Source: Cladosporium sp. IMV 00045
Lineage: Eukaryota > Ascomycota > Dothideomycetes > Cladosporiales > Cladosporiaceae
DNA: 64,000 nucleotides
NCBI GenBank assembly: GCA_001931905.2
Contig: MSJI02000775.1
Span: 18,185 to 82,184 of the forward strand
Direction: 5' to 3'
Part shown: piece by piece, positions 1 through 54,988 of the stretch
Layout: every line of letters starts with the position of its first letter
Position numbering within the stretch: the first letter of the stretch is position 1
The notes under the pieces: model-generated
Database searches by the model: none
Told to the model about the DNA's origin: nothing
Seen by the model: only the letters and a program-made list of their open reading frames with translations
Translations under genes and position numbers: made by a program

Positions 1-8
1 AGGCTTAC

Positions 9-46
9 TTTGAGAGGTGTTGCTTGCTCTCTTTACCTGAATCCAT
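9..46 (-). CDS. BTB/POZ protein, first exon only (block A copy of BTB1)
   Basis: A 13-codon first exon (ATG at 46 reading left, MDSGKESKQHLSK) ends at a GTAAGC donor at positions 8-3. It is recognised only by comparison with the complete block B gene at 14913-15669, whose first exon is also 38 nt, ends in the same phase and encodes a similar peptide (MYSDKDSKQRLVE). The rest of the gene, including the BTB fold, lies left of the window. The exon is too short to be recognised on its own; confidence rests on the repeat alignment. Confidence 0.7.
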
Positions 47-406
47 GACTGATTTTCTTTGATGCTGAGATGATAGGAAAATTGCGGGTGTTGATGAGTA
101 GAGTTGATCTGTGTCTGTGAGATGACAGAAAGCTTCAGTACAGGAGTGAGATGTATATATAGAGGGACTGACAAGTGAATGAAGCTTCAACTGGCAATCA
201 TTGACAGGCAGAGAGCAAGCAGCAATGACATGGTGAACACAAAGAGAGATGGGTGCAGACAAACGGTCAACTTCATTCTCTTCATACGCGTTCACTCACT
301 GCTGTGTTTGCTCTCTCAGAAAAGCAGAGCAGCAAAGAGAGACAGCACGAGAAAGAGTGCAACAAAGGTCGGATTCAGAACGACCAAACAAAGCTACAAG
401 CTGGTA

Positions 407-1330
407 CTAATACTCGAAATCACTGTCAAGCTGCTTCTCATCCGGATCCACGCCGAAAAGCTCGTTCAACCAATGCCTTGTCGCCTCGCCCCGGACTGGC
501 CTAGGAGCGTTCTTGCGTACTGCCAAATCTGGCCTTTTCCGCTTCCTGTATGGTCCTTCAGCCGAGCCTAATAGCTTAGTTCTCAGGTCAGGCAAGTCGC
601 AGAACAGCTTCTTGAAGGACTCGTTGGAAATCAAGGTTGCAATGTGTCTGTCAATGATCGGCAAAACCAATTTCCATAGCGTCTGATCGTGTGTAACCGC
701 GTCGATGTCTCGTAGCAACTCGACAAGCTTATGAGGTAACGGGTGGTTTCCGCATCGGATTCTTCCTGGTACTCAGTGTAGAGCAACTCATCGAGCGTTT
801 CCTTCTTCTCCCAGGACTCGAGGGCAAGTTTGCGCATAGAGGCGACATCGTATTTGTCAGCCATGGCGTACATGCGGGTGGAGAAAATAAGCTCCTCGAT
901 GCCGTTGGCAACGTCGTCTTCTTTGTCGCGGAAACGAAGATGGTACAGGTAGTGCACGAAATCGTAGAGGTCTTCTGGGTCGTCATCAGGTAAGTCGATA
1001 ACGCTTGCGCTGGACTCCTATTACAGCTGTCAGTAAAGACCTCTGTAGAAAGAGCTACTCTGGTCAGATCCTTCGCACCTTGAAAGGGCCCAGTAGCACT
1101 TTGCGAAAGTACTCAGACCGAGCATAGAGGATGGCCTTGTGAACTTTGATCTCGCATCCATGGCATGTCAGCGTGAGGTCGGAAAAGGCGCTCGTTTCCA
1201 GAAGAATGCAGCTCTAGTTATCTTGGCAATGGGTCTTGTGTGACGGCATTCGACTGGTAACATACACTCCGAGCGTGGAAGTAGCATTTTTGATGGAACC
1301 GGACTCGTCAGAATCTGACAAGTCCGGCAT
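407..1330 (-). pseudogene. BTB/POZ-domain gene, disabled (block A copy of BTB2)
   Basis: Homologue of the intact gene at 16237-17093. Exon 1 would be 1330-1079 and exon 2 1017-407, with the same intron position (phase 0, after a PFK tripeptide). The BTB core is still readable: FSDLTLTCHG, KVHKAILYARSEYFRK and, in exon 2, MYAMADKYDVASMRK. Two lesions are visible. An in-frame TAG stands at 1216-1214 where block B has CAG (a C-to-T change in a CpA context). A one-base deletion near 724 shifts the frame before the LLRDID segment that continues in the other copy. The C-terminal tail after the KKLFCDLPDL segment also differs in sequence and length. A sequencing error could explain the frameshift but is a less likely cause of the nonsense codon. 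The gene may still be transcribed. BTB proteins of this small fungal type have no assigned function. Confidence 0.8.
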
Positions 1331-2303
1331 GTTGACGAAGGCTTTTTTGTGCCAGGCACTGTTTCCACGCGTAGTGTGGTAGAAAGCCGGCTGTTGTTTG
1401 CAAAAGTGGAAGCGAGGGGGTTAGGTCAGTTGGAAGGAAGCGAGTGCAATTAAACGCCGTTCGGCGACTCACATGCAAGCAGCCGATTGCAAACGCCAAA
1501 GAGTGAAGTCTGTTTTGTGCGACATTGGCAATCAATCAAGTTGTCGGCATGGTGAGCTCACGTCTAGACGTAGCAAGATTCAAAAGGCCAGACGTTGGTA
1601 GCTTGTAATAACAGAAGGAAAACATCTTCTCCTACTACCACCTTAGGTCAACTCGTACACGTCAATCATCATTCTCCAGCCGTGGCCGCGGTGCTGCAAC
1701 GCACCAGCGAAAAGTCTGATGTGACAGCTCAGAAACAGAGGTGTGATGTTGCAAAGGAGTCTAGGGCAGGAAATCCTAGCCATTCAGGATGGAAGCATTG
1801 GACAATCACGGAGATGTCAGTACATCTTTCGTCACATGATCCTTATTCCAGACAGCGATTCATGATACCATTATATGTTATTTGTTGGTTTGGTTCAACG
1901 AAGAGACTCAGACGATGAAGACGGGTTCCAAACGATCGATGGGGTTACACAATAGGTGGTCCGAGAGTCCCCTGTCAGGCTAAACAAGCGAGCTGTGCAG
2001 CACCCCAGTATTCCCAGCCCTCCAGTTGCTGCTCTTTTACTCATTTTGGGGCACATCCGGTCCTGCTGCAGCTTAGCTTCACAAATGCAATGCAATGCAA
2101 TGCAGATGAACCCTGTAGTTGTTTTCAGCCCCCCTGCTACCACGATGCCGAGTTCTCGTTGGCTCTTTGCAATTGCATTAATGCTTATGGAGCTTTTTTC
2201 TTTCTGCTCATGACCTTGAACGTGTCTGTTCAATGCTTCAAGACTCCTCTGCCATTCACCTGGACTTCCCATCCGTGAAACAAGGCATAGCAACACCGGC
2301 GCC
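1331..2303. other. Gene-free stretch upstream of P450-A
   Basis: No coding region can be supported. The distal part (about 1331-1950) is poorly conserved against block B. The proximal ~350 bases are well conserved against 17704-18073 and include a short ATGCA iteration near 2085-2105 that is present in both copies. The proximal part is therefore the probable promoter and 5' UTR of the P450. The P450 ATG at 2304 lies in a GCCATGGCG context. Confidence 0.5.
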
Positions 2304-4036
2304 ATGGCGAACATTTTTCCAGGCCTTTGCGTGTCTTTAGCCACCATGATTGCGATTTACACATTCGCAAAGTGGCTCCGTGGCCCGGACACAAGTCACC
2401 TCCTGCCTCTTCCTCCAGGTCCCAAAGGCCTGCCGCTAATAGGCAATTTGAGAGACTTGCCTCCCAATGACGTCCCAGAACACGAGCGCTGGCTTCCATT
2501 CAAGGACCGCTACGGCCCTCTCAGCTCCATCACAGTCCCGGGCCAGACGATGATCCTCATCCATGATAGAGAAGTGGCCGTCGAGCTGATGGAGAAGCGC
2601 GCGAATAGGTACTCCGAGAGGATGCATTTGAAGTTTGGCAATGATATGTGAGTGTTAAGACCCTTTTCATAGATGTGTTAGTTTTGACGTGGGAATGAAA
2701 TAGGTGTGGATGGGGCAACATCTTAGCAAGCCTGCCGTACGGCGCATCTCATCGCCTGTACAGGAAGTATACCTACCGGCAGATCGGTACCAAGGCTGCC
2801 CTGTCCAGCTACCAAAGGCTACAGGAAGGGGCTGTGGGCCGCTTCTTGTCGAGGCTAAGTCGTGATGATGGATCCAATTTGGTGCATCATCTCAACAGGT
2901 AAGCAGAATTGTAATGCTAGCCAATTGGTGATCGCTGAACCATTCCTAGCGAGACTGCGGAGATTATCCTCGAGATCGTCTATGGATACACCGTCGATGC
3001 TGAAGGAGGAGACCCGCTCCTCCACAAAATCAACGAAGCTTTGAGGCAAGTCTCGGCCGCTTTTGTGCCTGGCAGGTGGGCGGTTGACATGTTCCCCATG
3101 CTGGAGCATATTCCAGATTGGTTCCCGGGAGCCGGATTCAAGCAAACCGCACGCTACTGGAATCAGACACTCATGTACGTGATCAACGTCCCCTTCGAGC
3201 TGGTCAAGACCCAGATGTCGCTTGGCCATGCCCGGACTTCGTTTGTCTCCAAGTCCATTGGGCAAGCTCGTCATGAAGGCCAATTTGGGCCAGACGACGA
3301 ACACGCGATCAAGTGGGCTGCAGGATCAATGTACGCTGCTGGCGCGGATACTTCTGTCTCGATCATGACTGCTTTCTTCTTGGCAATGAGCATGTTCCCA
3401 GACGTTCAAAAGAAAGCCCAAGAGGAAATTGAAAGAGTCGTTGGCACGTCCAGACTCCCAACTTTCAGTGACCGGGAGAACTTACCTTATATCAATGCCG
3501 TGGTGGAAGAAGCGCAAAGGTGGCATCCCATTCTTCCCTTAGGATTGCCACACGTAGCGTCTCGCGAAGACTCGATCAACGGAGTCCGCATTCCAACTGG
3601 CGCTATTCTTCTCCCTGCAGTCTGGTGGTTTACTCGGGACCCTACAGCGCACCACAAACCGGAGGAATTCAAGCCAGAGAGATTCCTTGAACCATACAAT
3701 GAGCCTTCCGCGACGAATGTCATCTTTGGTTTTGGAAGGCGGATCTGTCCCGGGAAGACTCTGGCTGATGCGACGCTTTTTATCACTATTGCTCAATCAT
3801 TAGCGGCTCTGAGTATAAAGAAGGCTGTGGATGAGAACGGCCAAGAGATAGAGCCGGATCATGTCTTTGGGAATGGTATTATTGCCCTTCCTGGACCGTT
3901 CAAGGCAATGATTGCACCGCGAAGCAAGAAGTACGAAGACCTGATCGAAAAGGCTGGGGAGCAATTTGCTCTCAAGCAGAAAGGTGCTGAGTCGCTGAAG
4001 GATTTGGGGTCAGGTGGCAAAGATGGAGCCTGGTGA
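2304..4036 (+). CDS. Cytochrome P450 monooxygenase (block A copy)
   Basis: Microsomal class II P450 of 541 residues. Exons are 2304-2647, 2704-2898 and 2950-4036, with introns of 56 and 51 nt. An N-terminal hydrophobic anchor (about residues 5-24) precedes a proline-rich hinge, LPPGPKGLPLIGN. The I-helix oxygen-binding motif AGADT is near residues 310-314, the K-helix ExxR is EAQR near 367-370, and the haem loop FGFGRRICPG places the cysteine ligand near 446. All catalytic landmarks are present, so the enzyme should be functional. Overall sequence style resembles the fungal O-methylsterigmatocystin-oxidoreductase-like families often found in secondary metabolism, but the substrate cannot be told. 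It converges on the SDR gene, with 182 bp between stop codons, and the pair is repeated in block B. The two P450 copies differ at about 28 of 541 residues by eye. Confidence 0.95.
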
Positions 4037-4218
4037 TAGCGTTTCAAGTGTCTGAAACGTCCATTTGAACGCCTCAAATTTTCGCCAGCGTGTTTCACAG
4101 CGAGAGCATACCATACTGTCGCCAACTCAATCCGGATGAAATGGTCATAGGCGAGCTCTCTTGAATATTTGGTGAATACCCATTCATACAATCAACCCAT
4201 TACGTACCAGCATTCTCA

Positions 4219-5085
4219 TCACTTTCCCTGCTTGTCGCCCAAATTCATTCCCTCCATCGTCTTCGTCGCCTCATCCTTGTATTCTTCCCTCCACCGGCTC
4301 TGCGGCATGCGCTCATAGACAACGTCACCCATAGTCCACATCATGCGCTTGCGGTCCGTCTCCCAGTCGACATCGTTGTCAGGACACATGACATAGAACT
4401 TACCCTCGCCCATCTTCTTGTACAGATGGTCAGCGACTTGCTCAGCCGACCAGGCGCCATCCGGTTTTGTCGCCGTGCTGCCGCCGCCGGTCATGCCCGT
4501 GAAGGTCCAGCCGGGCACGAGGAGGTGCACACTGGTCGCTGGGGATGATTTGGCAAGGTCGAACGAGAGATGCTCAGTGGTTGTTTTGATGGCCGATTTG
4601 GACGCATTGTATGCCGGGTTGCCCGGAGGGTTGGTGATGCCTTGTTTCGAGCCCGTGATGACAATGGCCTTCGGGTCGGAAGTGTTCGACTCAAAGTGTG
4701 GGAAGAAGGTGTTGATGCCGTTGATAACGCCGAAGAAGTTCACGTCGAAGATCTTGTGGAAGTATGCCGAGTCTGTCCAATCGCCTTTCGCACCTATGCC
4801 GGCGTTCAGGTGCATGAAATCGAGCTTTGTGTGGGAGACTTGCAGATGGGATTGCAAGACAGCCCAATCCTCGTGTCTGGCCACATCCATTGGGTGAGCT
4901 TCGAGAGAGGCATTGGTGGAGATTTTAGATTTGGCTTCTTCGAGAAGAGAAGCATTGTTATCGACAAGATAGAGGTTCATGCCTTTCGAAGCGCACAGTT
5001 TGGCCACCGCGAGACCAACGCCTGAGGCGGCGCCAGTGATCAAGGCGTTCTTGCCAGCTGAAAAGACTGCTGTAGGAGACGACAT
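4219..5085 (-). CDS. Classical short-chain dehydrogenase/reductase (block A copy)
   Basis: Single-exon NAD(P)-dependent oxidoreductase of 288 residues with a Rossmann fold. The cofactor motif TGAASGVG is at residues 17-24, the structural NAG at 94-96, the catalytic serine at about 146 (ITGSKQG) and the YxxxK pair at Tyr159/Lys163 (AYNASK). An aspartate after beta-2 (YLVDNN) would favour NAD over NADP. The product is probably soluble, since no signal peptide or membrane segment is seen. It sits tail to tail with the P450 and head to head with the GBD-FH3 gene (529 bp between start codons). A joint role with the P450, for example oxidising a hydroxyl the P450 installs, is inference from context only. 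The block B copy differs at roughly ten residues. Confidence 0.94.
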   Translation of the reverse strand: MSSPTAVFSAGKNALITGAASGVGLAVAKLCASKGMNLYLVDNNASLLEEAKSKISTNASLEAHPMDVARHEDWAVLQSHLQVSHTKLDFMHLNAGIGAKGDWTDSAYFHKIFDVNFFGVINGINTFFPHFESNTSDPKAIVITGSKQGITNPPGNPAYNASKSAIKTTTEHLSFDLAKSSPATSVHLLVPGWTFTGMTGGGSTATKPDGAWSAEQVADHLYKKMGEGKFYVMCPDNDVDWETDRKRMMWTMGDVVYERMPQSRWREEYKDEATKTMEGMNLGDKQGK

Positions 5086-5613
5086 TTTATGGTATACTGG
5101 GATTCCAGATGAAGACTATTCCAATTTATTCATTCAAAGACGAAATTAATCTGCTGTGTGCGTGGGATGTCGCTGTTATGGCAGCAGAATGACGTTGATA
5201 TAGGCTTAGGCGGCCTTGCTGAGGAAGGTTTGGAGCTACTCCACCGGCCATAAACACGGAGATAAGAAAAGCATTGGTAGAGAGCATCGGGGAGAGCACA
5301 TGTCAAAGCGTGCTGCGGAACACTTCACCTCAGAACGGCAATGCTCTAATTTGGTATCTCAGATACATGCAAGTGACGTCCTTCGCCATGTTCAACAGGC
5401 ATGTGGCTTGTAGGGAGAAATGCACGGCCGGAAAAGGCGAGAAATGGAGCAGCGTTGCTGGGCAACCTCTGCTAGCGTAAACAACAATCTGGAGAGCAAC
5501 ATTCACCTTCACACTCGACGCTAAAGACGAATGACCCAAGGCAGATCAAAAGCATACATTGACTTGTATAGCTTGGTTCTTCGAGATAGATATATACTGA
5601 CCGACAGCTCAGC

Positions 5614-8344
5614 ATGGCCGCGATTTCAGATCAACATGGCCAAACAAACGTCGAGGGGCGTCCGCAGCAACAGCAACAACAACAACCACAACACCGCCGC
5701 AACAAGTCCTCCAAGTTCCTCAAGTCGTTGGTCTCTTCCAAGTCTCGCCCGGTTTCTCCTGAAACCACTCCCTCAAGCTCAGCACACGTAGTGCAGACCA
5801 CCGGCCGAACACAGACAGTTCCTCTACTCCCACCAGACCACCCACACGCTTCCACTTCTCGAGTCCTCGGCGAGCGACAATCTAATGTGCAGTCTCCGCC
5901 CGCCTCGCCATCCAAAAGGGAAGACAAGCCCACTGTTACAGGCAGGTACCGATCACGTTCTCCCACCAAGCCCGAGAACAACCTGCCAAAGAAGACAAAA
6001 TCCACAACAAGCTTATCTGCTATGTTCGGCAAGGTAAACCGCTCCAGTCGCGACCTTACTTCCTACGCACCTCAAGTACAGCAATTTCAGGGACAAGAGA
6101 AGGAAAATACCACACCGCCGGATTCGGCAATTGACCCAGTGGACACTCCGATCTGGGCACAATTCGTGTCCCCAAGCAGCAACAACTTGCTAGAGTCGGA
6201 AGAAGGCAGGAACTCGTCTACCATAAAAGAAGAAATCTCTCGATACACACCTCAAGACTACTCCCCTGGCAAGCAACGGAACTTCAACGGTGGAACCACA
6301 GACCAGCCCAGTCTGAGACCGACCATGAGAAGCCGTCCGCAAAGCACTGTGATAACTCCCACTGACGGCTTTATGGGAGGTCTCGGGCGCAAAGTCAGCA
6401 ACGCAAGAGCGAGCATCGACACACGAAGGTCCGAGGACAGTTCTGGTAGAATGAGCAAAGAGGAATTCCAGCGTGCTTCGGTTGAGAGACCGAAGCTTCT
6501 ACACCGCCATTCAGATCGCCAGGTCAGTGGCAGCAGTGCGGAGCAGCCGGCTCCCAAAGAAAGACTCACTATTTCGAAGAGAGGCACAAGGGTCATGGCT
6601 GCCGTGGCTGCTCTCCAAGGCAAGGCTAAAGGCACGCCTGTCAAAGAGGAGGCTGCACTCGACGAAAAGACCGTGGACGCGGAGTTCGAAGCCGTTCTGG
6701 CTTCTCGAAATGTACCAGAGGCGATGAGGGAAAGGATGAGGACGTTGACCCTCAGAGTCAAGGCGGACTTCGTGAGGCAAGATCAAGGCGCTTCGAAGAA
6801 TGCGGACGGATCCGCAGCTCAAACACCAGCAGCAGCAGGAACGCAAGATGAGGCGGAGCAGCGACAACAGATCGAAGACGACCCCAAAATGTCTAAACGA
6901 TCCAGAAGCCGGACTTTTACCTTCTCGAAGGGCGACAAGAAGGGTAGCGACAGATCACCATCGAAGAAGCCTCGTTCCAGGAGCAAGGGCCGATCCCTTG
7001 CTATCAACATCCCAATGGGTCGCTCGTCGACGGATTTGACCACGCCGACGACGCCTACAGGCAGCTCATGGGGAAGAAAACACGCTGCGCCCGCTGTTGG
7101 CGAGTACATTACATATTTGAAGAAAAACCAAGACCCAAGGCAAGTCGAAGTTGGAAGGCTGCACAAATTGCGCATCTTGCTGCGCAATGAGACAGTGGCG
7201 TGGGTTGATGGCTTCATCTCTCAAGGCGGAATGGCAGAGGTGGTGGGCTTGCTGCACCGGCTCATGGACATTGAATGGCGAGAGGAGCATGAAGATCAAC
7301 TTTTGCATGAGACTTTGTTGTGTTTGAAGGGCTTGTGCACTACTGAAAGAGCATTGGCAGAACTCGCGCAGGTTGCGGATCGACTTTTTCCAGCCTTGTT
7401 TGGGATGCTCTTCGATCAGGAGAAGAAGGGACCGGCCGAGTACACCACTCGGACGATCATTGTGAATGTTCTTTGTAAGTTTTGGTGCCTAACACTGACA
7501 TTTCAAGCGCCAGCTAACAATCACAATAGTCACATACCTTGCAGCTCCACTCAACTCTCCAGCCATCGAGCTGGAAGAGCGCGCTCGCAAGATCCTCACA
7601 TATCTTGCAGAACCCCAGAAGGCAGAGACCGATAGGCCTGTCGCCTTCGTATTGGGCATGCATGTGCCTCGTCCCTACAAGTCGTGGTGCCAGGAAGTCT
7701 CGAATGTCACTAAGGAGGTCTTCTGGATCTTCCTGCACCACCTCAATGTCGTGCCACAACCCAAGCGCCCTGGCAGCGCTGGCTCGGACACGAATGCGCC
7801 ACTCAACGCAGAAGCATCTGCAGAGCGCAAGCGCACACTGGCGGCAACCTACACCCAGCGCCACTTTCCAGGTCTGAGGCCCCCCGTTCCTGCCGCACCA
7901 TACATCGGTGGCGTGGAATGGGACGCAACGACGTATCTCGCCGCACACCTCGACCTGCTGAACGGTCTAATCGCCTCGCTACCTACGGCTTCAGCCCGTA
8001 ACCTCCTGCGTGAGGAGCTGCAGGCAAGTGGTTTCGAAAAGACCATGGGCACCACGCTCCGCACGTGCAAGGAGAAATTCTACTCGGGCGTACACGACGG
8101 CTTGCGCGCCTGGGTCGCCGCCGCCGCCGAAGATGGATGGGAGACCAGACTCGTCCGCGAGGGCCCCGCTCAGGAAGAGCAGGCCGCCAGGGCTAGGAGT
8201 GCGAGCCCGAATAAGAAGAACAAGAAGAAGGACGCGCCGCCTCAGCTGACGACTGAGGTGGGAGTCGAGGCCTTGCCGAGGCTGGATGTCGATCTCGGCG
8301 GGAAGAAGAGTAATGTCGATGATGATGATGGATGGCTCGGATGA
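5614..8344 (+). CDS. GBD-FH3 (diaphanous-type) domain protein without FH2 (block A copy)
   Basis: Protein of 891 residues in two exons (5614-7474, 7530-8344; 55-nt intron, phase 1). The N-terminal ~480 residues are low complexity: a glutamine run near residue 20, many SP and RSxS sites, and basic patches, typical of a disordered phospho-regulated region. From about residue 490 an all-helical armadillo-like region begins (VGEYITYLKKNQDPRQ, then LHKLRILLRNETVAWVDGF), matching the GTPase-binding/FH3 half of formins. It continues through exon 2 (YKSWCQEVSNVTKEVFWIFL) to about 860. No proline-rich FH1 or actin-binding FH2 follows; the protein ends in a charged tail. This suggests a Rho-GTPase-responsive scaffold in polarity or septation, not an actin nucleator. 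Domain assignment is by pattern recognition. Confidence 0.85.
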
Positions 8345-8784
8345 TTGATATGACCACATTTTGATGTTTGTTTCTAAATTTCCTTTGAATGGCGTTTTTG
8401 TCGTTTTACTGGCATGGGATGGGATGGGATGGATTGGGTTGAAATTGGGATTGGGATTGGGCATGGCATTTTCGTTTTTCTTTGAACTCTCTCATTATAA
8501 CGGCAGTCACACAGTCTTCGTAACATGAAAAAAATTACAACGAAGTTTTCCTTTCGATATTCGTGTCAAGATTTACAACATTGGAAGATTCGTGTCTCGT
8601 TTTCTTTTGGCGTTCAGGAAGTCGCGTTCGGCTGTGGTCGATGCTTTCTCCGCGAAAGTCGCAGCGCGGCCGATGTCGTGGACTTTTGCATCGCCCTTTT
8701 GAATTGAGTATCAATACTCTAAACTTTGTTTCATTGTACAAATTGCCCTTCAATTAGTTTTGTAGAAGCGTATCAACCACTGCA

Positions 8785-10178
8785 ATGCGAAGAGTAGTAG
8801 TCACAGGCCTCGGCGCCGTAACGCCGCTCGCAGCCGGCATCAAACAAACATGGCGGAGGCTCATCGACTCCCAATCCGGCATCGTATCAACAACAATCAA
8901 GGGACCACAATTCGACTCTCTCCCCAGCCGCGTCGCCGGACTCGTCCCCCAAGGCAGCCGTGACGATGGCCGCTGGCAAGCGAAAGACTGGCTGCCCGCC
9001 AGCGAGGAGCGGCAAATGGCTCTCTTCGCCCAATACGCCGTGGCGTCTGCGCACGAAGCCCTGCAAGACGCCGGCTGGCATCCAACCAAGCAGGAGGATC
9101 TGGAGATGACGGGCGTCACGCTGGGCTCTGGGATTGGGAATCTCGACGAGGCTTATAATACTTCCGTGGCTTTTGACAAGGGCGGCTATCGTAAGGTTTC
9201 GCCTTTGTTCGTGCCCAGACTGCTCATCAATCTGGCTGCTGGGCATGTCTCGATTCGCTATGGTTTCAAGGGACCCAATCACGCTGCTACTACTGCTTGT
9301 ACCACCGGGTTGCATGCCATTGGCGATGCTTCGCGTATGATTGCTTTTGGGGATGCGAATGTTATGGTTGCTGGTGGAGCGGAGTCTTGCATTCATCCTC
9401 TTGCCATTGCTGGGTTCGCGAGAGCAAGGAGTCTGTCTACGGACTGGAATGATGAGCCTACCCTGTCTTCTCGCCCGTTCGATCGTCAGCGGGCTGGCTT
9501 TGTTATTGGCGAAGGTGCGGGTGTTGTCATTCTGGAGGTTCGTATATCATGATATCACCTATGTCGCTGAATTACTACTAACAATGGTCTAGGAGCTGGA
9601 ACATGCCAAAGCCCGCGGAGCCAAAATCTACGCCGAAGTCAAGGGCTATGGCCTTTCCTCTGACGCTCACCACATGACGGCACCGCGTGAGGATGGCGAA
9701 GGCCCGTATTTGGCTATGAGAAGCGCTTTGCGACACTCGAAGATTGAGCCACGAGCGGTAGACTATGTCAACGCGCATGCTACATCTACCGCCTTGGGTG
9801 ACGCATCCGAGAACCGAGCCATCAAGCGATTGATGCTTGAGGGCAACGGCAAGAAGAACGCCTCAGACATCAATATCAGCAGTACCAAGGGTGCTGTGGG
9901 ACATTTGTTGGGCGCTGCCGGTGCTGTCGAGGCAATCTTCACCATCATGGCCATCCGAGATGTGAGTTCCTTGAGGCCATGCCTTGATACCTTTTCTGAC
10001 AATTCTCTAGGGCATCCTACCACCAACTCTCAATCTCGACCAGCCAGGCGATCCCGCAGAAGACTTCGACTGCAATTACGTGCCCAAAGTCGCCCAAGAC
10101 CACGACGTAAAAGTGGCGCTGACCAACAGCTTCGGGTTTGGCGGCACGAACGCCAGTTTGTGTTTGGTGAAGTATTGA
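8785..10178 (+). CDS. CEM1: Mitochondrial 3-oxoacyl-[ACP] synthase, type II (block A copy)
   Basis: Beta-ketoacyl-ACP synthase of 429 residues from exons 8785-9537, 9593-9961 and 10011-10178 (introns 55 and 49 nt; an ACTAAC branch site is visible in the first). It catalyses the condensation step of type II fatty acid synthesis, which in fungi is the mitochondrial pathway supplying octanoyl-ACP for lipoate. The Cys-His-His triad is complete: Cys172 in TTACTTG, His313 in [11 protein letters not shown] and His355 in [13 protein letters not shown]. The C-terminal GFGGTNAS loop is present. The protein starts directly with [10 protein letters not shown], so a mitochondrial presequence is not obvious; an upstream start or dual targeting should be kept in mind. 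Length fits single-domain FabF/Cem1 enzymes and excludes a polyketide synthase. About eight residues differ from the block B copy. Confidence 0.94.
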
Positions 10179-10457
10179 TAATTGCTAATATCATCAATCA
10201 ACTCGAAAACACAGGACGTTCGGCGAATCTGCGTCTCTTATCTTCGCCGAACGAAATGGCTTGCCCCGCACCCTTGAAGCTGGTGTCCGCAGCCCCACCA
10301 TCGGACTTGATTTATGAGAAGGATTCCAATTGCTGTTCATGACGATGCCCGAGGAATACCTATTGATATAGCAAAAGCTTCTTTTAGAGAAGCCTTTACC
10401 AAGTTCGGGACTCGTTGTAGGTGCTTTGGCGAGCAGCCCACCTTGAGCTACAGCATC

Positions 10458-13461: not shown

Positions 13462-13481
13462 NNNNNNNNNNNNNNNNNNNN
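13462..13481. other. Assembly gap (20 N) joining two unrelated partial genes
   Basis: Twenty N bases. Left of the gap the sequence is exon 1 of the Ecl1-like gene read toward its 5' end. Right of the gap it is the middle of an NRAMP transporter on the other strand. Neither gene is completed across the gap. The fixed length of 20 suggests a placeholder of unknown true size. Confidence 0.99.
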
Positions 13482-13483
13482 GG

Positions 13484-19806: not shown

Positions 19807-19913
19807 TAGCGTTGCAAGTCCTGAGGATGTCGATTTAACTTTCAAATAGCGTCTGTTTGACAGCTGTCGAATTTGCATTCATACGACCAACCCATTACGT
19901 ACCAGCAGCCTCA

Positions 19914-20780
19914 TCACTTTCCCTGCCTGTCGCCCAAATTCATTCCCTCCATCGTCTTCGTCGCCTCGTCCTTGTATTCTTCCCTCCAACGGCTCTGCGG
20001 CATGCGCTCGTAGACAACGTCTCCCATAGTCCACATCATGCGCTTGCGGTCCGTCTCCCAGTCGACATCGTTGTCGGGACACATGACGTAGAATTTACCC
20101 TCGCCCATCTTCTTGTACATATGGTCGGCCACTTGTTCAGCCGACCAGGCGCCATCCGGCTTTGTCGCCGTGCTGCCGCCACCAGTCATGCCGGTGAAAG
20201 TCCAGCCGGGCACGAGGAGGTGCACACTGGTTGCTGGGGATGATTTGGCAAGGTCGAATGAGAGGTGCTCAGTGGTTGTTTTGATAGCCGATTTGGACGC
20301 ATTGTATGCCGGGTTGCCTGGAGGGTTTGTGATGCCTTGTTTCGAGCCCGTAATGACAATGGCTTTCGGGTCGGAAGAGTTCGACTCGAAGTGCGGAAAG
20401 AAAGTGTTGATGCCGTTGATGACGCCGAAGAAGTTCACGTCGAAGATCTTGTGAAAGTATGCCGAGTCTGTCCAATCCCCTTTTGCGCCTATGCCGGCGT
20501 TCAGGTGCAGGAAATCGAGCTTGGTGTGCGAGACTTGCAGATGAGATTGCAAGACAGCCCAGTCCTCGTGTCTGGCCACATCCATTGGGTGGGTTTCGAG
20601 GAAACCTTTAGTCGAGATCTTTGATTTGGCCTCATTGAGGAGGGAGGCATTATTATCGACGAGATAGAGGTTCATGCCTTTCGAGGCGCATAGTTTGGCC
20701 ACCGCGAGACCAACGCCTGAGGCGGCGCCAGTAATCAAGGCGTTCTTGCCAGATGAGAAGACTGCTGTAGGAGACGACAT
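19914..20780 (-). CDS. Classical short-chain dehydrogenase/reductase (block B copy)
   Basis: 288 residues, single exon. TGAASGVG (17-24), NAG (94-96), Ser146 and Tyr159/Lys163 are all unchanged from block A. The few substitutions lie outside the active site, notably in the segment KISTKGFLETH where block A has KISTNASLEAH. The stop codon lies 107 bp from the P450-B stop, closer than in block A (182 bp). Confidence 0.94.
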   Translation of the reverse strand: MSSPTAVFSSGKNALITGAASGVGLAVAKLCASKGMNLYLVDNNASLLNEAKSKISTKGFLETHPMDVARHEDWAVLQSHLQVSHTKLDFLHLNAGIGAKGDWTDSAYFHKIFDVNFFGVINGINTFFPHFESNSSDPKAIVITGSKQGITNPPGNPAYNASKSAIKTTTEHLSFDLAKSSPATSVHLLVPGWTFTGMTGGGSTATKPDGAWSAEQVADHMYKKMGEGKFYVMCPDNDVDWETDRKRMMWTMGDVVYERMPQSRWREEYKDEATKTMEGMNLGDRQGK

Positions 20781-21307
20781 TTTATGGTATACTGGATTTT
20801 CAGATGAGGACTATTCCACTTTATTCATTCAGAGAAGAAATCGATCTGCTGCGTGCGTGTGATGTCGCTGTTATGGCAGCAGAATGACGTTGATATATGC
20901 TTAGGCGGCCTTGCTGAGGAAAGTTTGAAGCTACTCCACCGGCCATAAACACGGAGATAAGAAGAGCATTGGTAGAGAGCATCGGGGAGAGCACATGTCA
21001 AAGCGTGCTGCGAACACTTCACCTCAGAACGGTAATGGTCTAATTTCGTATCTCAGATATATGCAAGTGACGTCCTTTGCCATGTTCAACAGGCATGTGG
21101 CTTGTAGGGAGAGACGCACGGGCGGGAAGGGCGAGAAATGGAGCAGCGTTGCTGGGCAACCTCTGCTAGCGTAAACAACAATCTGGAGAGCAACATTCAC
21201 CTTCACACTCGACGCTAAAGACGAATGACCCAAGGCAGATCAAAAGCATACATTGACTTGTATAGCTTGGTTCCTCGAGATAGATATATACTAACCGACA
21301 GCTCAGC

Positions 21308-24038
21308 ATGGCCGCGATTTCAGATCAACATGGTCAAACAAAAGTCGAGGGGCGTCCCCAGCAACAGCAACAACAGCAACCACAACACCGCCGCAACAAG
21401 TCCTCCAAGTTTCTCAAGTCGTTGGTCTCTTCCAAGTCTCGCCCGGTTTCTCCTGAAACCACTCCATCAAGCTCAGCACATGTAGTGCAGGCCACCGGCC
21501 GAACACAAACCGTCCCTCTACTTCCACCAGACCACCCACACGCTTCCACTTCTCGAGTCCTCGGCGAGCGACAATCTAATGTGCAGTCTCCGCCCGCCTC
21601 GCCATCCAAAAGAGGAGACAAGTCCACTGCCACAGGCAGGTACCGATCACGTTCTCCCACCAAGCCCGAGAACAACCTGCCAAAGAAGACAAAATCCACA
21701 ACCAGCTTGTCTGCTATGTTCGGCAAGATAAACCGCTCCAGTCGCGATCTTACTTCCTACGCACCTCAAGTACAGCAGTTTCAGGGACAAGAGAAGGAAA
21801 ACACCACACCGCCGGATTCGGCAGTTGATCCAGTGGACACTCCAATCTGGGCACAATTCGTGTCTCCAAGCAGCAACAACTTGCCAGAGTCGGAAGAAGG
21901 AAGGAACTCATCTACCATAAAAGAAGAGATCTCCCGATACACCCCTCAAGACTACTTCCCCGGCAAGCAACGGAACTTCAACGGTGGAACCACAGACCAG
22001 CCCAGTCTGAGACCGACCATGAGAAGTCGTCCGCAAAGCACGGTGATAACTCCCACCGACGGCTTTATGGGAGGTCTCGGGCGCAAAGTCAGCAACGCAA
22101 GAGCGAGCATAGACACACGAAGGTCCGAAGACAGTTCTGGTAGAATGAGCAAAGAGGATTTCCAGCGTGCTTCGGTTGAGAGACCGAAGCTGCTACACCG
22201 CCATTCAGATCGCCAGGTCAGTGGCAGCAGTGCCGAGCAGCCGGCTCCCAAAGAAAGACTCACTATCTCGAAGAGAGGCACAAGAGTCATGGCTGCCGTG
22301 GCTGCTCTCCAAGGCAAGGCTAAAGGCACGCCTGTCAAAGAGGAGGCTGTACTCGACGAAAGGACCGTGGATGCGGAGTTCGAGGCCGTTCTGGCTTCTC
22401 GAAATGTGCCAGAGGCGATGAGGGAAAGGATGAGGACGTTGACCCTCAGAGTCAAGGCGGACTTCGTGAGGCAAGATCAAGGCGCTTCGAAGAATGCGGA
22501 CGGATCCGCTGCTCAAACACCTGCAGCAGCGGCAACCCAAGACGAGGCGGAGCAAAGACAACAGATCGAAGACGACCCCAAGATGTCTAAACGATCAAGA
22601 AGTCGGACTTTTACCTTCTCCAAAGGCGACAAGAAGGGCAGTGACAGATCGCCATCGAAGAAGCCTCGTTCCAGGAGCAAGGGCCGTTCACTTGCTATCA
22701 ACATCCCAATGGGTCGCTCGTCAACGGATCTGACCACACCTACAACGCCCACAGGCAGCTCGTGGGGAAGGAAACACGCTGCGCCAGCCGTTGGCGAGTA
22801 TATCACATATTTGAAGAAGAACCAAGACCCAAGGCAAGTCGAAGTTGGAAGATTGCACAAATTGCGCATCTTGCTGCGCAATGAGACAGTGGCGTGGGTT
22901 GATGGCTTCATCTCTCAAGGCGGAATGGCAGAGGTGGTGGGCTTGCTGCACCGTCTCATGGACATTGAATGGCGAGAGGAGCATGAAGATCAGCTTTTGC
23001 ATGAGACTTTGCTGTGCTTGAAGGGGCTGTGCACCACTGAAAGAGCATTGGCAGAACTTGCACAAGTTGCGGATCGTCTTTTCCCGGCCTTGTTTGGGAT
23101 GCTCTTCGATCAGGAGAAGAAAGGACCGGCCGAGTACACCACTCGGACAATTATTGTGAATGTCCTTTGTGAGTATTGACGCCTCGCGGTGACCATGGGA
23201 CCCTCAGCTAACGATCATGACAGTCACATACCTTGCAGCTCCACTCAACTCTCCAGCCATCGAGCTGGAAGAGCGCGCTCGCAAGATTCTCACATATCTT
23301 GCCGAGCCCCAGAAGGCAGAGACCGATAGGCCTGTCGCTTTCGTATTGGGCATGCATGTACCTCGCCCCTACAAGTCTTGGTGCCAGGAAGTCTCGAATG
23401 TCACTAAGGAAGTCTTCTGGATCTTCCTGCACCACCTCAATGTCGTGCCACAACCCAAGCGCCCTGGCAGCGCTGGCTCGGACACAAACGCGCCACTCAG
23501 CGCAGAAGCATCCAAGGAGCGCGAGCGCACACTGGCAGCAACCTACACCCAGCGCCATTTCCCAGGTCTGAGGCCTCCTGTTCCTGCCGCACCGTACATT
23601 GGTGGCGTAGAATGGGATGCAACGACGTATCTCGCTGCACACCTCGACCTGCTGAATGGCCTGATCGCCTCACTACCTACGGCTCCAGCCCGGAACCTTC
23701 TGCGTGAAGAGCTGCAGGCAAGTGGATTCGAAAAGACCATGGGCACCACGCTCCGCACCTGCAAGGAGAAATTCTACTCGGGCGTACACGACGGCCTGCG
23801 CGCCTGGGTCGCCGCCGCCGCCGAAGATGGATGGGAGACCAGGCTCGTCCGCGAGGGCCCTGCCCAGGAAGAGCAGGCCGCCAGGGCTAGGAGCGCGAGC
23901 CCGAATAAGAAGAACAAGAAGAAGGACGCGCCGCCTCAGCTGACAACTGAGGTGGGAGTCGAAGCCTTGCCGAGGCTGGATGTCGATCTCGGCGGGAAGA
24001 AGAGTAATGTCGATGATGATGATGGATGGCTAGGATGA
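21308..24038 (+). CDS. GBD-FH3 domain protein without FH2 (block B copy)
   Basis: Exons 21308-23168 and 23224-24038 (891 residues, same exon lengths as block A). The disordered N-terminal half carries scattered substitutions; the helical GBD-FH3 part (residues ~490-860) is almost invariant between copies. That pattern indicates both copies have been under purifying selection on the folded part. Role inferred as a Rho-type GTPase-binding scaffold. Confidence 0.85.
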
Positions 24039-24469
24039 TTGATATGACCACATTTTGAATGTTTTTTTCTCAAATTTTCTTTGGGTGGCGTTTTTGTCGT
24101 TTTACTGGCATGGGATGGGTTGGGAAGGAAATTGGGGATTGGGGATTGGGATTGGGCAAGGCATTTTCGTTTTTCTTTGAACCCTCTCATTATAACGGCA
24201 GTCACACAGTCTTCGTAACATGAAAAAAATTGCAACGAAGTTTTTTCTTTTTGATATTCATGTCAAGATTTACAATATTGAAAGATTCATGTCTCGTTTT
24301 CTTTCGGCGTTCAGGATGTGTCGTTCGGCTGTGGTCGATGCTTTCTCCGCGAAAGTCGCAGCGCGGCCGATCTCTTAGACTTCTGCAGCGCCCTTTTGAT
24401 AGGAATACAGCTTTCTAAACTCAATTCTATTGAACATATCATTGTTTTGAAAGTATTCCGATAGCTGTC

Positions 24470-25866
24470 ATGCGAAGAGTAGTAGTAACAGGCCTCGGTG
24501 CCGTGACGCCGCTTGCAGCCGGCATCAAGCAAACATGGCGGAGGCTCATCGACTCCCAATCCGGCATCGTATCAACAACAACCAAAGGACCACAATTCGA
24601 CTCGCTTCCCAGCCGCGTCGCCGGACTCGTCCCACAAGGCAGTCGAGATGACGGCCGCTGGCAAGCAAAAGACTGGCTGCCCGCCAGCGAGGAGCGGCAA
24701 ATGGCTCTCTTCGCCCAGTACGCCGTGGCGTCTGCGCACGAAGCCCTGCAAGACGCCGGCTGGCATCCGACCAAGCAGGAGGATCTGGAGATGACGGGCG
24801 TCACGCTGGGCTCTGGGATTGGGAATCTCGACGAGGCTTATAATACTTCCGTTGCGTTTGACAAGGGCGGCTATCGTAAGGTTTCGCCCTTGTTCGTGCC
24901 CAGACTGCTCATCAATCTGGCCGCTGGGCATGTTTCTATTCGATATGGCTTCAAAGGTCCGAATCACGCTGCTACTACTGCCTGCACGACTGGGTTGCAC
25001 GCGATTGGCGATGCTTCGCGTATGATTGCCTTTGGGGATGCGAATGTTATGGTTGCTGGTGGAGCGGAGTCTTGCATTCATCCTCTTGCTATTGCTGGGT
25101 TCGCCAGAGCGAGGAGTCTGTCTACGGACTGGAATGATGAGCCTACCCTGTCTTCTCGCCCGTTCGATCGTCAGCGGGCTGGCTTTGTTATTGGCGAGGG
25201 TGCGGGTGTTGTCATTCTAGAGGTCAGTATATCATGATATCGTTTATCGCGCTGAAACACTACTAACGACGGTCTAGGAGCTGGAACATGCCAAAGCCCG
25301 TGGAGCCAAAATCTACGCCGAAGTCAAGGGCTATGGTCTTTCTTCTGACGCTCACCACATGACAGCACCGCGTGAAAATGGCGAAGGCCCATATTTGGCT
25401 ATGAGAAGCGCTTTGAGACACTCGAAGATTGAGCCACGAGCGGTAGACTATATCAACGCGCATGCCACTTCCACCGCTTTGGGTGATGCTTCTGAAAACC
25501 GAGCTATCAAGCGGTTGCTGCTTGAAGGTGAAGGCAAGAAGAAAGCGTCGGATATCAATGTGAGCAGCACTAAAGGTGCTGTGGGACATTTGTTAGGCGC
25601 TGCTGGTGCTGTCGAGGCTATCTTCACTATCATGGCCATCCGAGATGTGAGTTTTGCGTGACTCCATGTTTAGGGTGCATTTTCTGACGATACTCTAGGG
25701 CACCCTACCACCAACTCTCAATCTCGACCAGCCAGGCGATCCCCCAGAGGACTTCGACTGCAATTACGTGCCCAAAGTTGCCCAAGATCACGACGTAAAA
25801 GTGGCGCTGACCAACAGCTTCGGGTTTGGCGGCACGAACGCCAGTCTGTGTTTGGTGAAGTATTGA
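24470..25866 (+). CDS. CEM1: Mitochondrial 3-oxoacyl-[ACP] synthase, type II (block B copy)
   Basis: Exons 24470-25222, 25278-25646 and 25699-25866 (753, 369 and 168 nt, as in block A) encode 429 residues. Cys172, His313 and His355 and the GFGGTNAS loop are present. Substitutions are conservative and mostly in the variable loop before the second active-site histidine ([11 protein letters not shown] against [11 protein letters not shown]). The introns differ far more than the exons. Confidence 0.94.
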
Positions 25867-26146
25867 TAATTGCTAATATCATCGAACAATTTGAAAACAC
25901 AGGACGTTCGGCGAATCTGCATCTCTTATCTTCGCCGAACGAAATGCCTTGCCCCGCACCCTTGAAGCTGGTATCCGCAGCCCCACCATGGGGCTTGATT
26001 TATGAGAAGGATTCCCTTTGCTCTTCATGACGATGCCCGAGGAGTAGTGATATAGCAAAAGCTTCTTTTGGAGAAGCCTTTCCCAAGCCACGGACTCGAC
26101 GTTGGTGCTTTGACTAGCGAAGCACTTCGAGCTGAAGCATTTCTCC

Positions 26147-27442
26147 ATGGACAGCATGGACGGAGCAAAGCAACCACTGCTCAGACGCATGCGCAAGCAG
26201 GCGACTGCATACCATGAGCGGACTCCATACCTACGCCGTCTGCCCGGGCCTGCGATTGCGATAATCCTCCTCTTGGTCCTGGTCAACATCCTCGTCTGGA
26301 TCGCCTGTGCAATCGTACTGCACTTCCATACTTCCTTGGTCTCGACAGCCGTCCTAGCCTACACCCTCGGCCTCCGCCATGCCCTAGACGCCGACCACAT
26401 ATCCGCCATCGACCTGATGACGCGCCGTCTCGTCGCCTCGGGGCAAAGACCAGTGACAGTCGGCACATTCTTCTCGCTCGGCCACAGCACGATAGTGTTC
26501 GTCACCGCCATCGTCGTCGCCGCCAGCTCCGCCGCCATCAGCGACCGCTTCGACTCCTTCGCCAACGTCGGCGGCATCATCGGCTCCTCCATCTCCTCCG
26601 CCTTCCTCATCATCCTCGGCGCCATGAACGCCTGGATCCTGTACAAACTCCTCCACTCCCTGCGCACCGCCATCCACTCCCCCCACGGCCACACCCAACC
26701 GGACTCCAGCACCCTCTTCACCGGCGGGGGATGCATGCTTCACCTCCTCAAAAAACTCTTCCACCTCATCGACCGGCCCTGGAAAATGTACCCGCTCGGC
26801 GTCCTCTTCGGCCTCGGCTTCGACACCTCCTCCGAAATCGCCCTGCTGGGCATCTCCTCCATCCAAGCCGCCCACGGCACTTCCATGTGGCTCATCCTGA
26901 TTTTCCCCCTCCTCTTCACCGCCGCCATGTGCCTGCTGGACACCACCGACGGCGCCGCCATGATGAGCCTGTACAGCTCCGCGCGCCTGGCCAGCGACGC
27001 CATCGCGGTCCTGTACTACCAGAGCGTGCTCACGGCCATCACCGTCGCGGTGGCGCTGGCCATCGGAACGCTGCAGTTGCTCAGCATGATTCTCGCGGTA
27101 CGCCCGGAGTTGCACGGGCCTTTCTGGGACGGCGTGCAGGTTACGGGCGATCATTATGATGTTATCGGGGGCGCGGTTTGTGGCGCTTTTGTTGTTTTTG
27201 GCGGGTTGGCGTTTTGCTGCTATGGGGCTTGGAGGAGACGCGTGGATCGTTGGCGTTTGGTGCATGCGGCGCCGGGGGTGGAGGGGGAGGGATATGCGGA
27301 TGAAGGGGAGGCGGAAGGGCGGGGAGGCGGTGCCGATGTTGGAGAGGCTGGGAAGGCTTTTGATGGGAGGGGTGGGAATGGGAAGGGAGGTGTTGTGGTG
27401 AGTGTGAGCGGAGAAGGGGTTAGTGCTGGTGGCAGATCTTGA
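26147..27442 (+). CDS. NicO-family nickel/cobalt transporter (block B copy)
   Basis: 431 residues, intronless, starting MDSMDGAKQPLL. HALDADHISAID, SLGHSTIVF and LGFDTSSEIALL are all intact. The transmembrane core is nearly identical to the block A copy; the glycine-rich C-terminal tail is six residues longer and divergent. No ATG upstream in frame is conserved, which supports this start in both copies. Confidence 0.93.
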   Translation: MDSMDGAKQPLLRRMRKQATAYHERTPYLRRLPGPAIAIILLLVLVNILVWIACAIVLHFHTSLVSTAVLAYTLGLRHALDADHISAIDLMTRRLVASGQRPVTVGTFFSLGHSTIVFVTAIVVAASSAAISDRFDSFANVGGIIGSSISSAFLIILGAMNAWILYKLLHSLRTAIHSPHGHTQPDSSTLFTGGGCMLHLLKKLFHLIDRPWKMYPLGVLFGLGFDTSSEIALLGISSIQAAHGTSMWLILIFPLLFTAAMCLLDTTDGAAMMSLYSSARLASDAIAVLYYQSVLTAITVAVALAIGTLQLLSMILAVRPELHGPFWDGVQVTGDHYDVIGGAVCGAFVVFGGLAFCCYGAWRRRVDRWRLVHAAPGVEGEGYADEGEAEGRGGGADVGEAGKAFDGRGGNGKGGVVVSVSGEGVSAGGRS

Positions 27443-27935
27443 GAAGATAGGAAGTTGGTAAAGAAGTCCTGAAAGCGTAAAGCAGCAAGGAAATGTAAAG
27501 AGAAATTTGGATTGAAAGTAGAGTAGAGGATCTCGCAACGGCAGCTTGATCAAACTGCGCCTGCTCGTGGTGTGGATTGTCTATATAATAAAAAGATCTA
27601 GCCGACGGGAAAAAGGACATTGGATGGGAGATGTATTCCACAGACCGATGGTGATGGCAGAATTTGGATCTGTATAGGTATATATACAAAAGACACATAA
27701 AAAAGCAGCCTGGAATCTCCTGGGCGTACTCAAAAAGATAAAGACAAAAAAACGTGACACCCTGGAAATGCCGCTGCGCAGTAATTTTTTGGTGAAGGAC
27801 TGATGGCGTTGGTATTTCCCAGCCAGCCAGCCAAGCCTTCGAAAGATCAAAAACAGAAATGGTCGTTATCTCGTTTCCCTCGCGTCCATGCAAGTGGTCT
27901 GGGATGTGGGTTTTCCTCAGACATTGCAGGATGAT

Positions 27936-27967
<32 letters not shown>

Positions 27968-28228
27968 NNNNNNNNNNNNNNNNNNNNTTTTTTTTTTTTG
28001 TGTGTTCCGCGCCACCCTTTTTGCAAGGCAAATAACTCCAGAGGAAAACAATCAGAGACAAATAAAGACAAATAGAACAGAAACAAGCAGAGAGATGCGT
28101 ATAGCCCAGTTTCCCGATTCCAGTGCAGTTGATATCCTTTTTTGGCGTTCATAATTGAACCCACTCTAGTCTTCTTCCTAAAGACTCGCCACCACCAAAG
28201 AGCTCCCTTTGAGAAATCACCGGGCGAA
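27443..28228. other. Intergenic region with poly-T tract and assembly gap (27968-27987)
   Basis: A run of about 30 T (from about 27937) leads into 20 N and then 11 more T. The matching block A sequence near 12235-12260 has only a short T-rich stretch, so the tract is an insertion or expansion specific to block B. The gap is most simply an assembler failure in a homopolymer. No gene is seen. The region lies between two convergent genes. Confidence 0.85.
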
Positions 28229-29386
28229 TCACACACGGCTCGTTCTCCTCTTCGACGCACAGCGAATCGCATCGTGGTTGAAAAGCTGCCTCAAACTCCC
28301 CATAGCGGCACCCGAAGCGCCCTGCGTGCTGTCGCGACGGAAAGCCTTCTCCAGGCTCGGACGTCTGGTCTCGTCGTGGTGGGCGGTGTTGCTGCCCTCG
28401 GCGATGCGGAGGCTGGTCAGAGTGCTGGCCTGGCTTTTCAGGCTGGCGTCTTGCTGGCTGACGAGAGTAGGGCTGGGAGGCGCCGTGAGGGGAATGACAA
28501 GGTCGATGCTTTTTGTTGTTGAGTTGCGGGTTGGTGCGTGGTGGTGGAAGTGTGAGGCGGTTGTGCCGTAGGAGCTAGAGGGGGAGTGGATGAGGGAGGG
28601 GACGTCTGTTGCGGTCGAGGCTCGTTTGGTGGACGGGTGGCGGGGCGCGAGGGTTTCGCAGGTCGGGTAGCCGGGGAGGTCGAGGACGTGAGGGTCCAGG
28701 CTTTCGGGCTCGAAGTCGTCGTAGTGGTTGTGCGAGGGATCTTCGTCGGGGGCGTAATTTGATGAGGTCGTTGATGAGTTGGAAGAAATGCGGGTGAGGT
28801 TCAGCTCAGAGAAGGTGTTTGAAAGAGGGCGGAGGACGGTTGGTGAGCGCATGGGGAGGATGTCGACTGGAGGGTGGTCTGAGTAGGCGTGTGTTGTAGG
28901 GCTGATTGGAGGTGATTGGGGTTGTTGAGGGGTGCATGTTGTGGAGTCTCTGCGGCGGCAACTAGTAACGAGTCAGTATGGGGATGCATTGGAATATATT
29001 TCGTTATCAAGGATTGGAATACTTACGCCTCGGAGCAGTAGAGAATGCTGAAACTAGGAGTAACGATCTGCTTCTCGCAAGTCGCGCTGCAAAGTAGAAA
29101 GTTGATCAGCACAAGGGTCTCGAGGACAAGACGAGAGATGATCGACAGGAACATACCAGAATTGCAAAAAGCTAGCAGCCATGTCTTCGCCGTCTGCGTC
29201 GGACGTATTTACGACCTCACCACGGGACTTTTGCCTTCGAAGAGCTGTCGATGGGTTGTTGGCAGCGGCGTTGTTGTAGCTTGGGCTACGCCTCGATGAG
29301 AGAGCTGGTCTGCCGGAGCGAGCGTGGGCGGCTTGAGGCTTGAGGCCATTGGATTGGGAACGCTTGTGAGGGGGACGGGCGTTCAT
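28229..29386 (-). CDS. ECL1: Ecl1-like zinc-binding lifespan/stress factor (block B, complete)
   Basis: Three exons, 29386-29157, 29086-29027 (60 nt) and 28961-28229, give 340 residues. The exons were joined by splice signals and by the protein they produce: a compact cysteine motif across all three, FCATCEK (Cys77, Cys80) followed by ILYCSEACRRRD (Cys94, Cys98). This is the pattern of the Ecl1/life-span regulatory family, small fungal zinc-binding proteins that extend chronological lifespan and respond to nutrient and metal stress. The N-terminal ~70 residues are basic and serine/proline rich; the long C-terminal region is disordered with many SP/TP sites. Probably nuclear, by analogy with the yeast proteins. 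The family match is by motif only. Confidence 0.78.
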
Positions 29387-34342: not shown

Positions 34343-34890
<548 letters not shown>

Positions 34891-54857: not shown

Positions 54858-54988
54858 GCGAAACTCTCATTGGCTTTGTCAGGTGTTCCTCGGAGTATTG
54901 AAAGGACGGATCATTTTACATTCTACTTTCTGATCTATTGCTGATGACCTGCCTGATAATGCACCTTACTCCTCACATACTTGATGTA

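What the first reader, a model, noticed from the sequence alone, without database searches (positions are those of the whole stretch)
1..29386. Eight-gene ~13.5-kb block present twice in direct orientation with gene-by-gene collinearity
Two BTB genes, P450, SDR, GBD-FH3, mitochondrial KAS, NicO transporter and Ecl1-like gene are repeated with identical order, strand and exon lengths. Divergence is a few percent in proteins (about 28 of 541 residues in the P450, about ten of 288 in the SDR, about eight of 429 in the KAS) and higher in introns. That is too much for recent tandem duplication and too much for ordinary alleles. It fits homeologous chromosomes of a hybrid or diploid fungus placed in one scaffold (known, for example, in Hortaea werneckii), or an old segmental duplication.
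Basis: partly seen in the sequence, partly recalled or inferred. Interest (0 to 1): 0.75.

Follow-up and report, generated by a model that had tools for sequence, protein, structure and literature searches.

The report
Two parental copies misassembled end-to-end
The doubled gene block is most likely not a tandem duplication: it is two diverged versions of one chromosome region, from a Cladosporium-like mould that appears to carry two genomes, which the assembly program laid one after the other across an artificial gap.

Summary
The repeat is really in the sequence, and larger than described: block A (contig C772 16033-31645) and block B (31666-47394) share 89.2% of aligned bases; the NRAMP "spacer" belongs to it. 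The blocks meet only at a run of exactly 20 N (window 13462-13481), and both touch it. At the gap, A's last 242 and B's first 262 bases match the other copy exactly, the two longest of 105 exact runs. B's NRAMP starts mid-frame. This is the known "duplicated overlapping contigs" error: two haplotype contigs placed in series.

In four conserved families 17 of 41 genes are paired. Four pairs lie on one contig in one orientation, three of them across a 20-N gap. RIP marks an rDNA copy and a repeat element but not A or B.

By one protein the nearest named relatives are Cladosporium, not Hortaea; Cladosporium genomes I saw listed are 28-34 Mb, this assembly 49.9 Mb. Hybrid, heterozygous diploid, heterokaryon and mixed culture need reads to separate.

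The parts
1..13461 (+). Block A (version 1); its left end lies outside the window at C772:16033; its right end is the base before the N gap
13462..13481 (.). Run of exactly 20 N; the only junction between A and B
13482..29210 (+). Block B (version 2); begins at the base after the gap
13220..13461 (+). 242-bp exact match of A's end to B 28969-29210; second longest of 105 exact runs between the blocks
13482..13743 (+). 262-bp exact match of B's start to C772:16033-16294 (outside the window); longest of 105 exact runs
28969..29210 (+). B counterpart of A's terminal exact run; after 29210 no second long copy was found
13482..14506 (+). NRAMP-family transporter, B copy, cut off by the gap (about 247 codons of the open frame missing); the A copy is an open frame of 588 codons at C772:15291-17055
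27968..27987 (.). Second 20-N run, inside B, flanked by poly-T on both sides; probably an ordinary low-complexity break
16398..17126 (-). BTB/POZ-domain ORF, B copy
   Evidence: Pfam PF00651
2939..4036 (+). Cytochrome P450 exon, A copy
   Evidence: aligned with the B copy
18709..19806 (+). Cytochrome P450 exon, B copy
   Evidence: PF00067
4219..5115 (-). Short-chain dehydrogenase, A copy
   Evidence: aligned with the B copy
19914..20810 (-). Short-chain dehydrogenase, B copy
   Evidence: PF00106
5590..8344 (+). Formin-type GTPase-binding-domain gene, A copy (two open frames)
   Evidence: PF06371
21284..24038 (+). Formin-type GTPase-binding-domain gene, B copy (two open frames)
   Evidence: PF06371
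8758..10342 (+). Beta-ketoacyl synthase, A copy (two open frames)
   Evidence: PF02801 in the second frame; first frame aligned with B
24434..25237 (+). Beta-ketoacyl synthase N-terminal exon, B copy
   Evidence: PF00109
10311..11735 (+). NicO nickel/cobalt transporter, A copy
   Evidence: PF03824
26114..27442 (+). NicO nickel/cobalt transporter, B copy
   Evidence: PF03824
12480..13223 (-). Ecl1-like ORF, A copy
   Evidence: aligned with the B copy
28229..28972 (-). Ecl1-like ORF, B copy
   Evidence: PF12855, just below cut-off
29211..60882 (.). Flank continuous with B, no second long copy found; read as a collapsed or single-version stretch (from 47000 on the search was only partly scored)

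Best explanation
A and B are the two diverged versions (alleles or homeologues) of one chromosome region in a strain or culture that holds two related genomes. The assembler followed one version rightwards from the left flank (contig X: flank + A) and the other leftwards from the right flank (contig Y: B + flank). Each contig ran a short way into sequence identical in both versions and stopped. Paired reads told the scaffolder that X and Y belong together; the implied overlap was not merged because the sequences differ by about 11%. They were therefore written end to end with a 20-N placeholder, which made a false tandem duplication. Inferred: the paired-read step, the meaning of the 20 N, and that the two genomes are parental subgenomes of a hybrid or heterozygous diploid.
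For: 20-N gap with A ending at the base before it and B starting at the base after it. Terminal exact runs of 242 and 262 bp are the two longest of 105 exact matches of 30 bp or more; the next is 144. If run lengths were randomly placed, the chance that these two are the longest is 2/(105x104), about 2e-4. B's NRAMP starts inside the frame while A's frame is open. C772 6283-16032 and window 29300-47000 have no second long copy. C772 1-6282 has its partner on a separate contig, C41, which also starts with the longest exact run of that pair (161 bp, longest of 107). Related arrangements on C761, C546 and C603. 17 of 41 genes of four conserved families are paired. A/B differences lack RIP context (153 of 829 C/T-type transitions lie before A, the rarest of four contexts), although RIP marks an rDNA copy and a repeat element. 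The layout matches Kelley and Salzberg's 'duplicated overlapping contigs' (PMC2864568, passages).
Against: No reads, depth or mate pairs were available. Not every other case shows the clean signature: on C761 the right contig's start finds no match in the held left sequence; on C603 the left contig's last 562 bp are unmatched and the right start has only a 71-bp exact run; on C846 no gap was seen in the part read (83001-92764). MCM genes are 0 of 6 paired, so the assembly does not show a fully doubled genome. For the last 17 kb of the window only 38 of 77 candidates were scored.
Confidence: 0.9

Rival explanations
1. True old tandem segmental duplication of a 15.6-kb unit, with an assembly gap at the junction.
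For: Collinear direct repeat on one contig; both copies under purifying selection (Ka/Ks 0.045-0.11).
Against: No sequence supports the junction. The two longest exact runs sit at the two gap ends. Genes on other contigs are paired at comparable divergence (Ks 0.10-0.27), which a local event does not explain. RIP marks are absent from A and B though present in an rDNA copy and a repeat element.
Confidence: 0.05
2. The series placement is an artefact as above, but the two versions come from a mixed culture of two related Cladosporium-like strains or species.
For: Would give two diverged copies of many genes; patchiness could reflect uneven abundance.
Against: Contig A ends in sequence identical to B and no further A-type sequence was found for window 29300-47000; two well covered organisms should leave both versions. 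The two 5.8S loci found (39 of 1671 candidates scored) differ only by RIP-type changes over 492 aligned bp, so one ITS type was seen. This is weak, because rDNA often collapses in assemblies.
Confidence: 0.15
3. The series placement is an artefact as above, but the two versions are nuclei of a heterokaryon or alleles of an outbred diploid, and the single-copy part is merely lower-divergence sequence collapsed by the assembler, without hybridisation or loss of heterozygosity.
For: Divergence between versions varies: about 87-96% identity by pair and about 65-97% by 500-bp bin inside the block.
Against: About 11% mean nucleotide divergence and Ks 0.2-0.4 is high for alleles of one species (general knowledge); it is comparable to the 88-92% identity between H. 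werneckii subgenomes (PMC5952469, passages).
Confidence: 0.3

Closest known systems
Duplicated overlapping contigs (false segmental duplication), Kelley and Salzberg 2010, PMC2864568 (passages)
   Same: Two neighbouring contigs overlap at their facing ends; each carries homozygous sequence on the opposite side and a heterozygous part in common; they are laid in series
   Different: Their cases are vertebrate haplotypes of higher identity (96% or more required in their step for unplaced contigs); here divergence is about 11%; mate pairs could not be checked here
Diploid hybrid Hortaea werneckii (PMC5952469 and PMC9535773, passages)
   Same: Assemblies of about 50 Mb, two subgenomes with 88-92% nucleotide identity in aligned regions, many core genes in two copies, fragmented assemblies
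   Different: The organism here is nearest to Cladosporium by one protein; 17 of 41 genes tested are paired, against an average of 65.5% duplicated BUSCOs in diploid H. werneckii (different gene sets); loss of heterozygosity is described as relatively scarce in H. werneckii
Cryomyces antarcticus with alternative-haplotype contigs (PMC11412873, passages)
   Same: Dothideomycete believed haploid whose assembly holds a partial second set of contigs
   Different: Heterozygosity there at most 1.15%, far below the divergence here

Membership tests
False segmental duplication (duplicated overlapping contigs) | Facing contig ends separated by a gap and overlapping in sequence | tested here: met
   20 N at window 13462-13481; A and B touch it
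False segmental duplication (duplicated overlapping contigs) | Contigs carry shared (homozygous) sequence at the ends of the overlap | tested here: met
   242- and 262-bp exact terminal runs, the longest two of 105
False segmental duplication (duplicated overlapping contigs) | Mate pairs more consistent when the copies are merged | not testable with these tools
   no reads available
True tandem segmental duplication | Sequence-resolved junction between copy 1 and copy 2 | tested here: not met
   only N at the junction
Hybrid or heterozygous diploid fungal genome | Many unlinked single-copy genes present in two diverged copies | tested here: inconclusive
   17 of 41 genes paired, but MCM 0 of 6; 9 of the 17 pairings rest on score and open-frame length only
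Hybrid or heterozygous diploid fungal genome | Two k-mer or read-depth peaks, half depth in heterozygous blocks | not testable with these tools
   no reads
Hortaea werneckii | Proteins near-identical to H. werneckii | tested here: not met
   one protein tested: NicO 69.8% (A) and 69.3% (B) identical to P0031, named H. werneckii
Cladosporium | Closest named proteins and ITS belong to the genus | tested here: inconclusive
   one protein tested: NicO 87% to C. fusiforme, 79-81% to Cladosporium sp. NU13, 77-78% to C. halotolerans; the ITS likeness of L041 is from memory only

The most novel reading that the evidence does not exclude
A Cladosporium-like mould, from a genus whose listed genomes are haploid-sized (28-34 Mb in the rows I saw), exists as a hybrid or highly heterozygous diploid with about 35 Mb per set, in which more than half of the genome has already lost one parental version. 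The heterozygous blocks would then alternate with homozygous tracts whose borders (such as C772:16033 and C772:31645/47394) are mitotic recombination breakpoints.
Probability: 0.35. Interest if true: 0.5.

Novelty: not a real feature. Interest (0 to 1): 0.27.

Why it matters
Read literally, the window would support a 15.6-kb tandem duplication of a transporter, P450 and KAS block, and false gene gains. Gene counts from this assembly are probably inflated: 4 of the 17 gene pairs found here sit on one contig in one orientation. The true signal is ploidy. If reads confirm it, this would be a heterozygous or hybrid genome in a common genus whose listed genomes are haploid-sized, with borders of heterozygous tracts that can be mapped to the base.

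Tried and rejected
Hortaea werneckii as the source was my first guess, from genome size and GC; rejected on one protein's identity. RIP as the source of A/B differences: rejected (153 of 829 C/T-type transitions lie before A, the rarest of four contexts; direction balanced, 426 to 403; dinucleotide indices of both copies like the gene-rich rest of the window). A third copy of the block elsewhere: none for window 4181-8180 (only A and B); the rest of the block was not searched successfully for a third copy (one search was not scored), apart from the part inside. A uniform doubling of the genome: contradicted by MCM (0 of 6). A gap in C846 between the two kinesin copies: none in 83001-92764; the rest of the interval was not read. 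C603 was meant as a full second test; it is only a half match. Assembler gap convention: one paper search gave two listings, neither opened; that 20 N marks an unmerged negative gap in Celera-type assemblers is recalled. Paper searches for a diploid or hybrid Cladosporium: the titles and abstract starts listed named none (12 of 18 papers listed, 9 of 9, 10 of 41); this covers only the held library, those terms and those listings.
Full report
OBSERVATION. The window is C772:18185-82184 of a 49,867,185-base, 954-contig assembly. Self-comparison confirms two direct collinear copies. With the 18,184 bases upstream added, the repeat is block A = C772 16033-31645 and block B = C772 31666-47394 (window 13482-29210), with 89.2% identity over aligned bases, 1672 substitutions and 488 gap columns. 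Identity by 500-bp bin runs from about 65% near the BTB region to about 97% in the first bin. Two runs of exactly 20 N lie at window 13462-13481 and 27968-27987. The NRAMP gene described as sitting between the blocks is part of the repeat: its A copy lies upstream of the window.

THE JUNCTION. A ends at the last base before the first N run and B starts at the first base after it. Going outward from the gap, A's last 242 bases equal B's last 242 (C772 47153-47394), and B's first 262 bases equal C772 16033-16294. Of 105 exact matches of 30 bp or more between the blocks, these are the longest two; the next is 144. B's NRAMP begins inside the reading frame, about 247 codons in, while A's frame is open for 588 codons through the matching point. 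The second N run has poly-T on both sides, with only a short T-rich stretch in A at that place, and looks like an ordinary homopolymer break. This is the picture expected if two contigs, each following one version of a heterozygous region and ending just inside sequence common to both, were placed in series. Kelley and Salzberg describe this case as duplicated overlapping contigs (PMC2864568, passages seen). That a fixed 20 N stands for an unmerged overlap in Celera-type assemblers is recalled, not found in a call.

FLANKS. C772 6283-16032 has no second long copy: one search covers 1-10000 (4 candidates, 3 scored: C41 matches only 1-6282; two 68% relatives match 8151-9455), and one search covers 10001-18184 (2 of 2 candidates scored: the stretch itself and B). 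Window 29300-47000 has no second copy beyond one 247-bp stretch (2 candidates, 1 scored, the other presumably the query's own place). In 47000-64000 the listed matches lie from 60883 on, in repeats; 38 of 77 candidates were scored, so this is weaker. The partner of C772 1-6282 is contig C41, 94.5% identical, which starts with a 161-bp exact run, the longest of 107. So doubled and single-copy stretches alternate along the contig. A 4-kb piece of the block has no third copy.

GENOME-WIDE. Chaperonin family: 18 matches make 8 pairs and 2 singles by BLASTN, the pairs at about 87-96% identity. MCM: 6 matches, all single (9 of 9 candidates scored). Kinesin: 21 matches (19 over the cut-off), which I read as 5 pairs and 6 singles. 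Proteasome: 34 exon matches, which I read as 14 genes with 4 pairs, leaving out a fragment at C910:124494. Kinesin and proteasome genes were paired by score and open-frame length, not by sequence. Together 17 of 41 genes are paired. Taken as representative, that implies a single set of about 35 Mb (49.87/1.41). Cladosporium genomes in the rows I saw are 28.3-33.8 Mb (PMC12843665, passages; some table rows were cut from view) and 32.2 Mb, GC 52.8%, for Cladosporium sp. NU13 (PMC13064199, passages).

OTHER CASES. Four of the 17 pairs lie on one contig in the same orientation: C761, C546, C846, C603. C761 has a 20-N gap at 51987-52006; its left contig ends in a 179-bp exact run, the longest of 5, but no match for the right contig's start was found in the held sequence. 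C546 has a gap at 102573-102592; the right contig starts with a 191-bp exact run to 77660, the longest of 17 in the loci compared, and the stretch 110895-119942 at the contig end is still collinear with 87001-96148 at 87.7%, so the other end cannot be tested. C603 has a gap at 30842-30861; B starts at the gap and matches from 25707, the place expected from the offset, but with only a 71-bp exact run, and A's last 562 bp are unmatched. C846: no gap in the part read. Counting C772, C761, C546 and C603, homology reaches the gap at 5 of 7 testable contig ends, and 4 of these 7 end in the longest or second longest exact run of their pair.

DIVERGENCE AND RIP. Ks in the block is 0.20-0.43, Ka/Ks 0.045-0.11; for seven of the eight chaperonin-family pairs (the C761 pair was not computed) Ks is 0.10-0.27; for C41 the two longest frames give 0.30 and 0.20. 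The third C41 frame, with Ka/Ks above 3, is probably not a coding frame. A/B differences show no RIP bias. RIP has acted in this lineage: an rDNA copy on C220 differs from the C517 copy at 33 of 492 aligned bases, all C to T before A or G to A after T, and a repeat element in the window has RIP-like dinucleotide indices. A real duplicate that had passed through a RIP-competent cycle should be marked; A and B are not. This supports copies on separate homologues, but it depends on when RIP last acted.

ORGANISM. For the B-copy NicO protein the best match is an unnamed cluster, P0001 (A 98.7%, B 96.8% over 377 residues). Named Cladosporium follow: C. fusiforme 87%, NU13 79-81%, C. halotolerans 77-78%. 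H. werneckii is 69-70%. P0001 lies nearer A than B, which hints that A and B belong to different lineages; one protein is thin evidence. The ITS in L041 looks like Cladosporium to me from memory only.

VERDICT. The tandem arrangement is most likely an assembly artefact; the two versions are real DNA from two diverged genomes. Whether this is a hybrid with loss of heterozygosity, an outbred diploid, a heterokaryon or a mixed culture needs reads.

Noticed in passing
L042 (C220:35811 region): An 18S-ITS-LSU rDNA copy whose 33 differences from the L041 rDNA over 492 aligned bp are all of RIP type (C to T before A, G to A after T).
   Followed up: partly
window 61792-63643: A roughly 1.85-kb repeated element with about 50-bp imperfect terminal inverted repeats and RIP-like dinucleotide indices, with full or partial matches on more than 15 other contigs; contig C772 ends inside a second copy (63671-64000).
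   Followed up: partly
window 60883-61064: A 180-bp palindromic, MITE-like element with 43-bp perfect arms, seven copies at 99-100% identity listed elsewhere, sharing terminal motifs with the larger element.
   Followed up: partly
C846:63990 and C846:92765: Two kinesin copies with near-equal scores on one contig, same strand, 28.8 kb apart; probably another series placement, gap not located.
   Followed up: partly
C910:124494-124664 and C910:133648-134100: A partial proteasome-subunit match 9 kb upstream of a fuller one on the same strand; possibly another series placement.
   Followed up: no
L041 (C517): rDNA is joined to unrelated upstream sequence containing what looks, from memory, like a 5S rRNA gene; most of the 18S is missing, so this may be a misjoin.
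   Followed up: no
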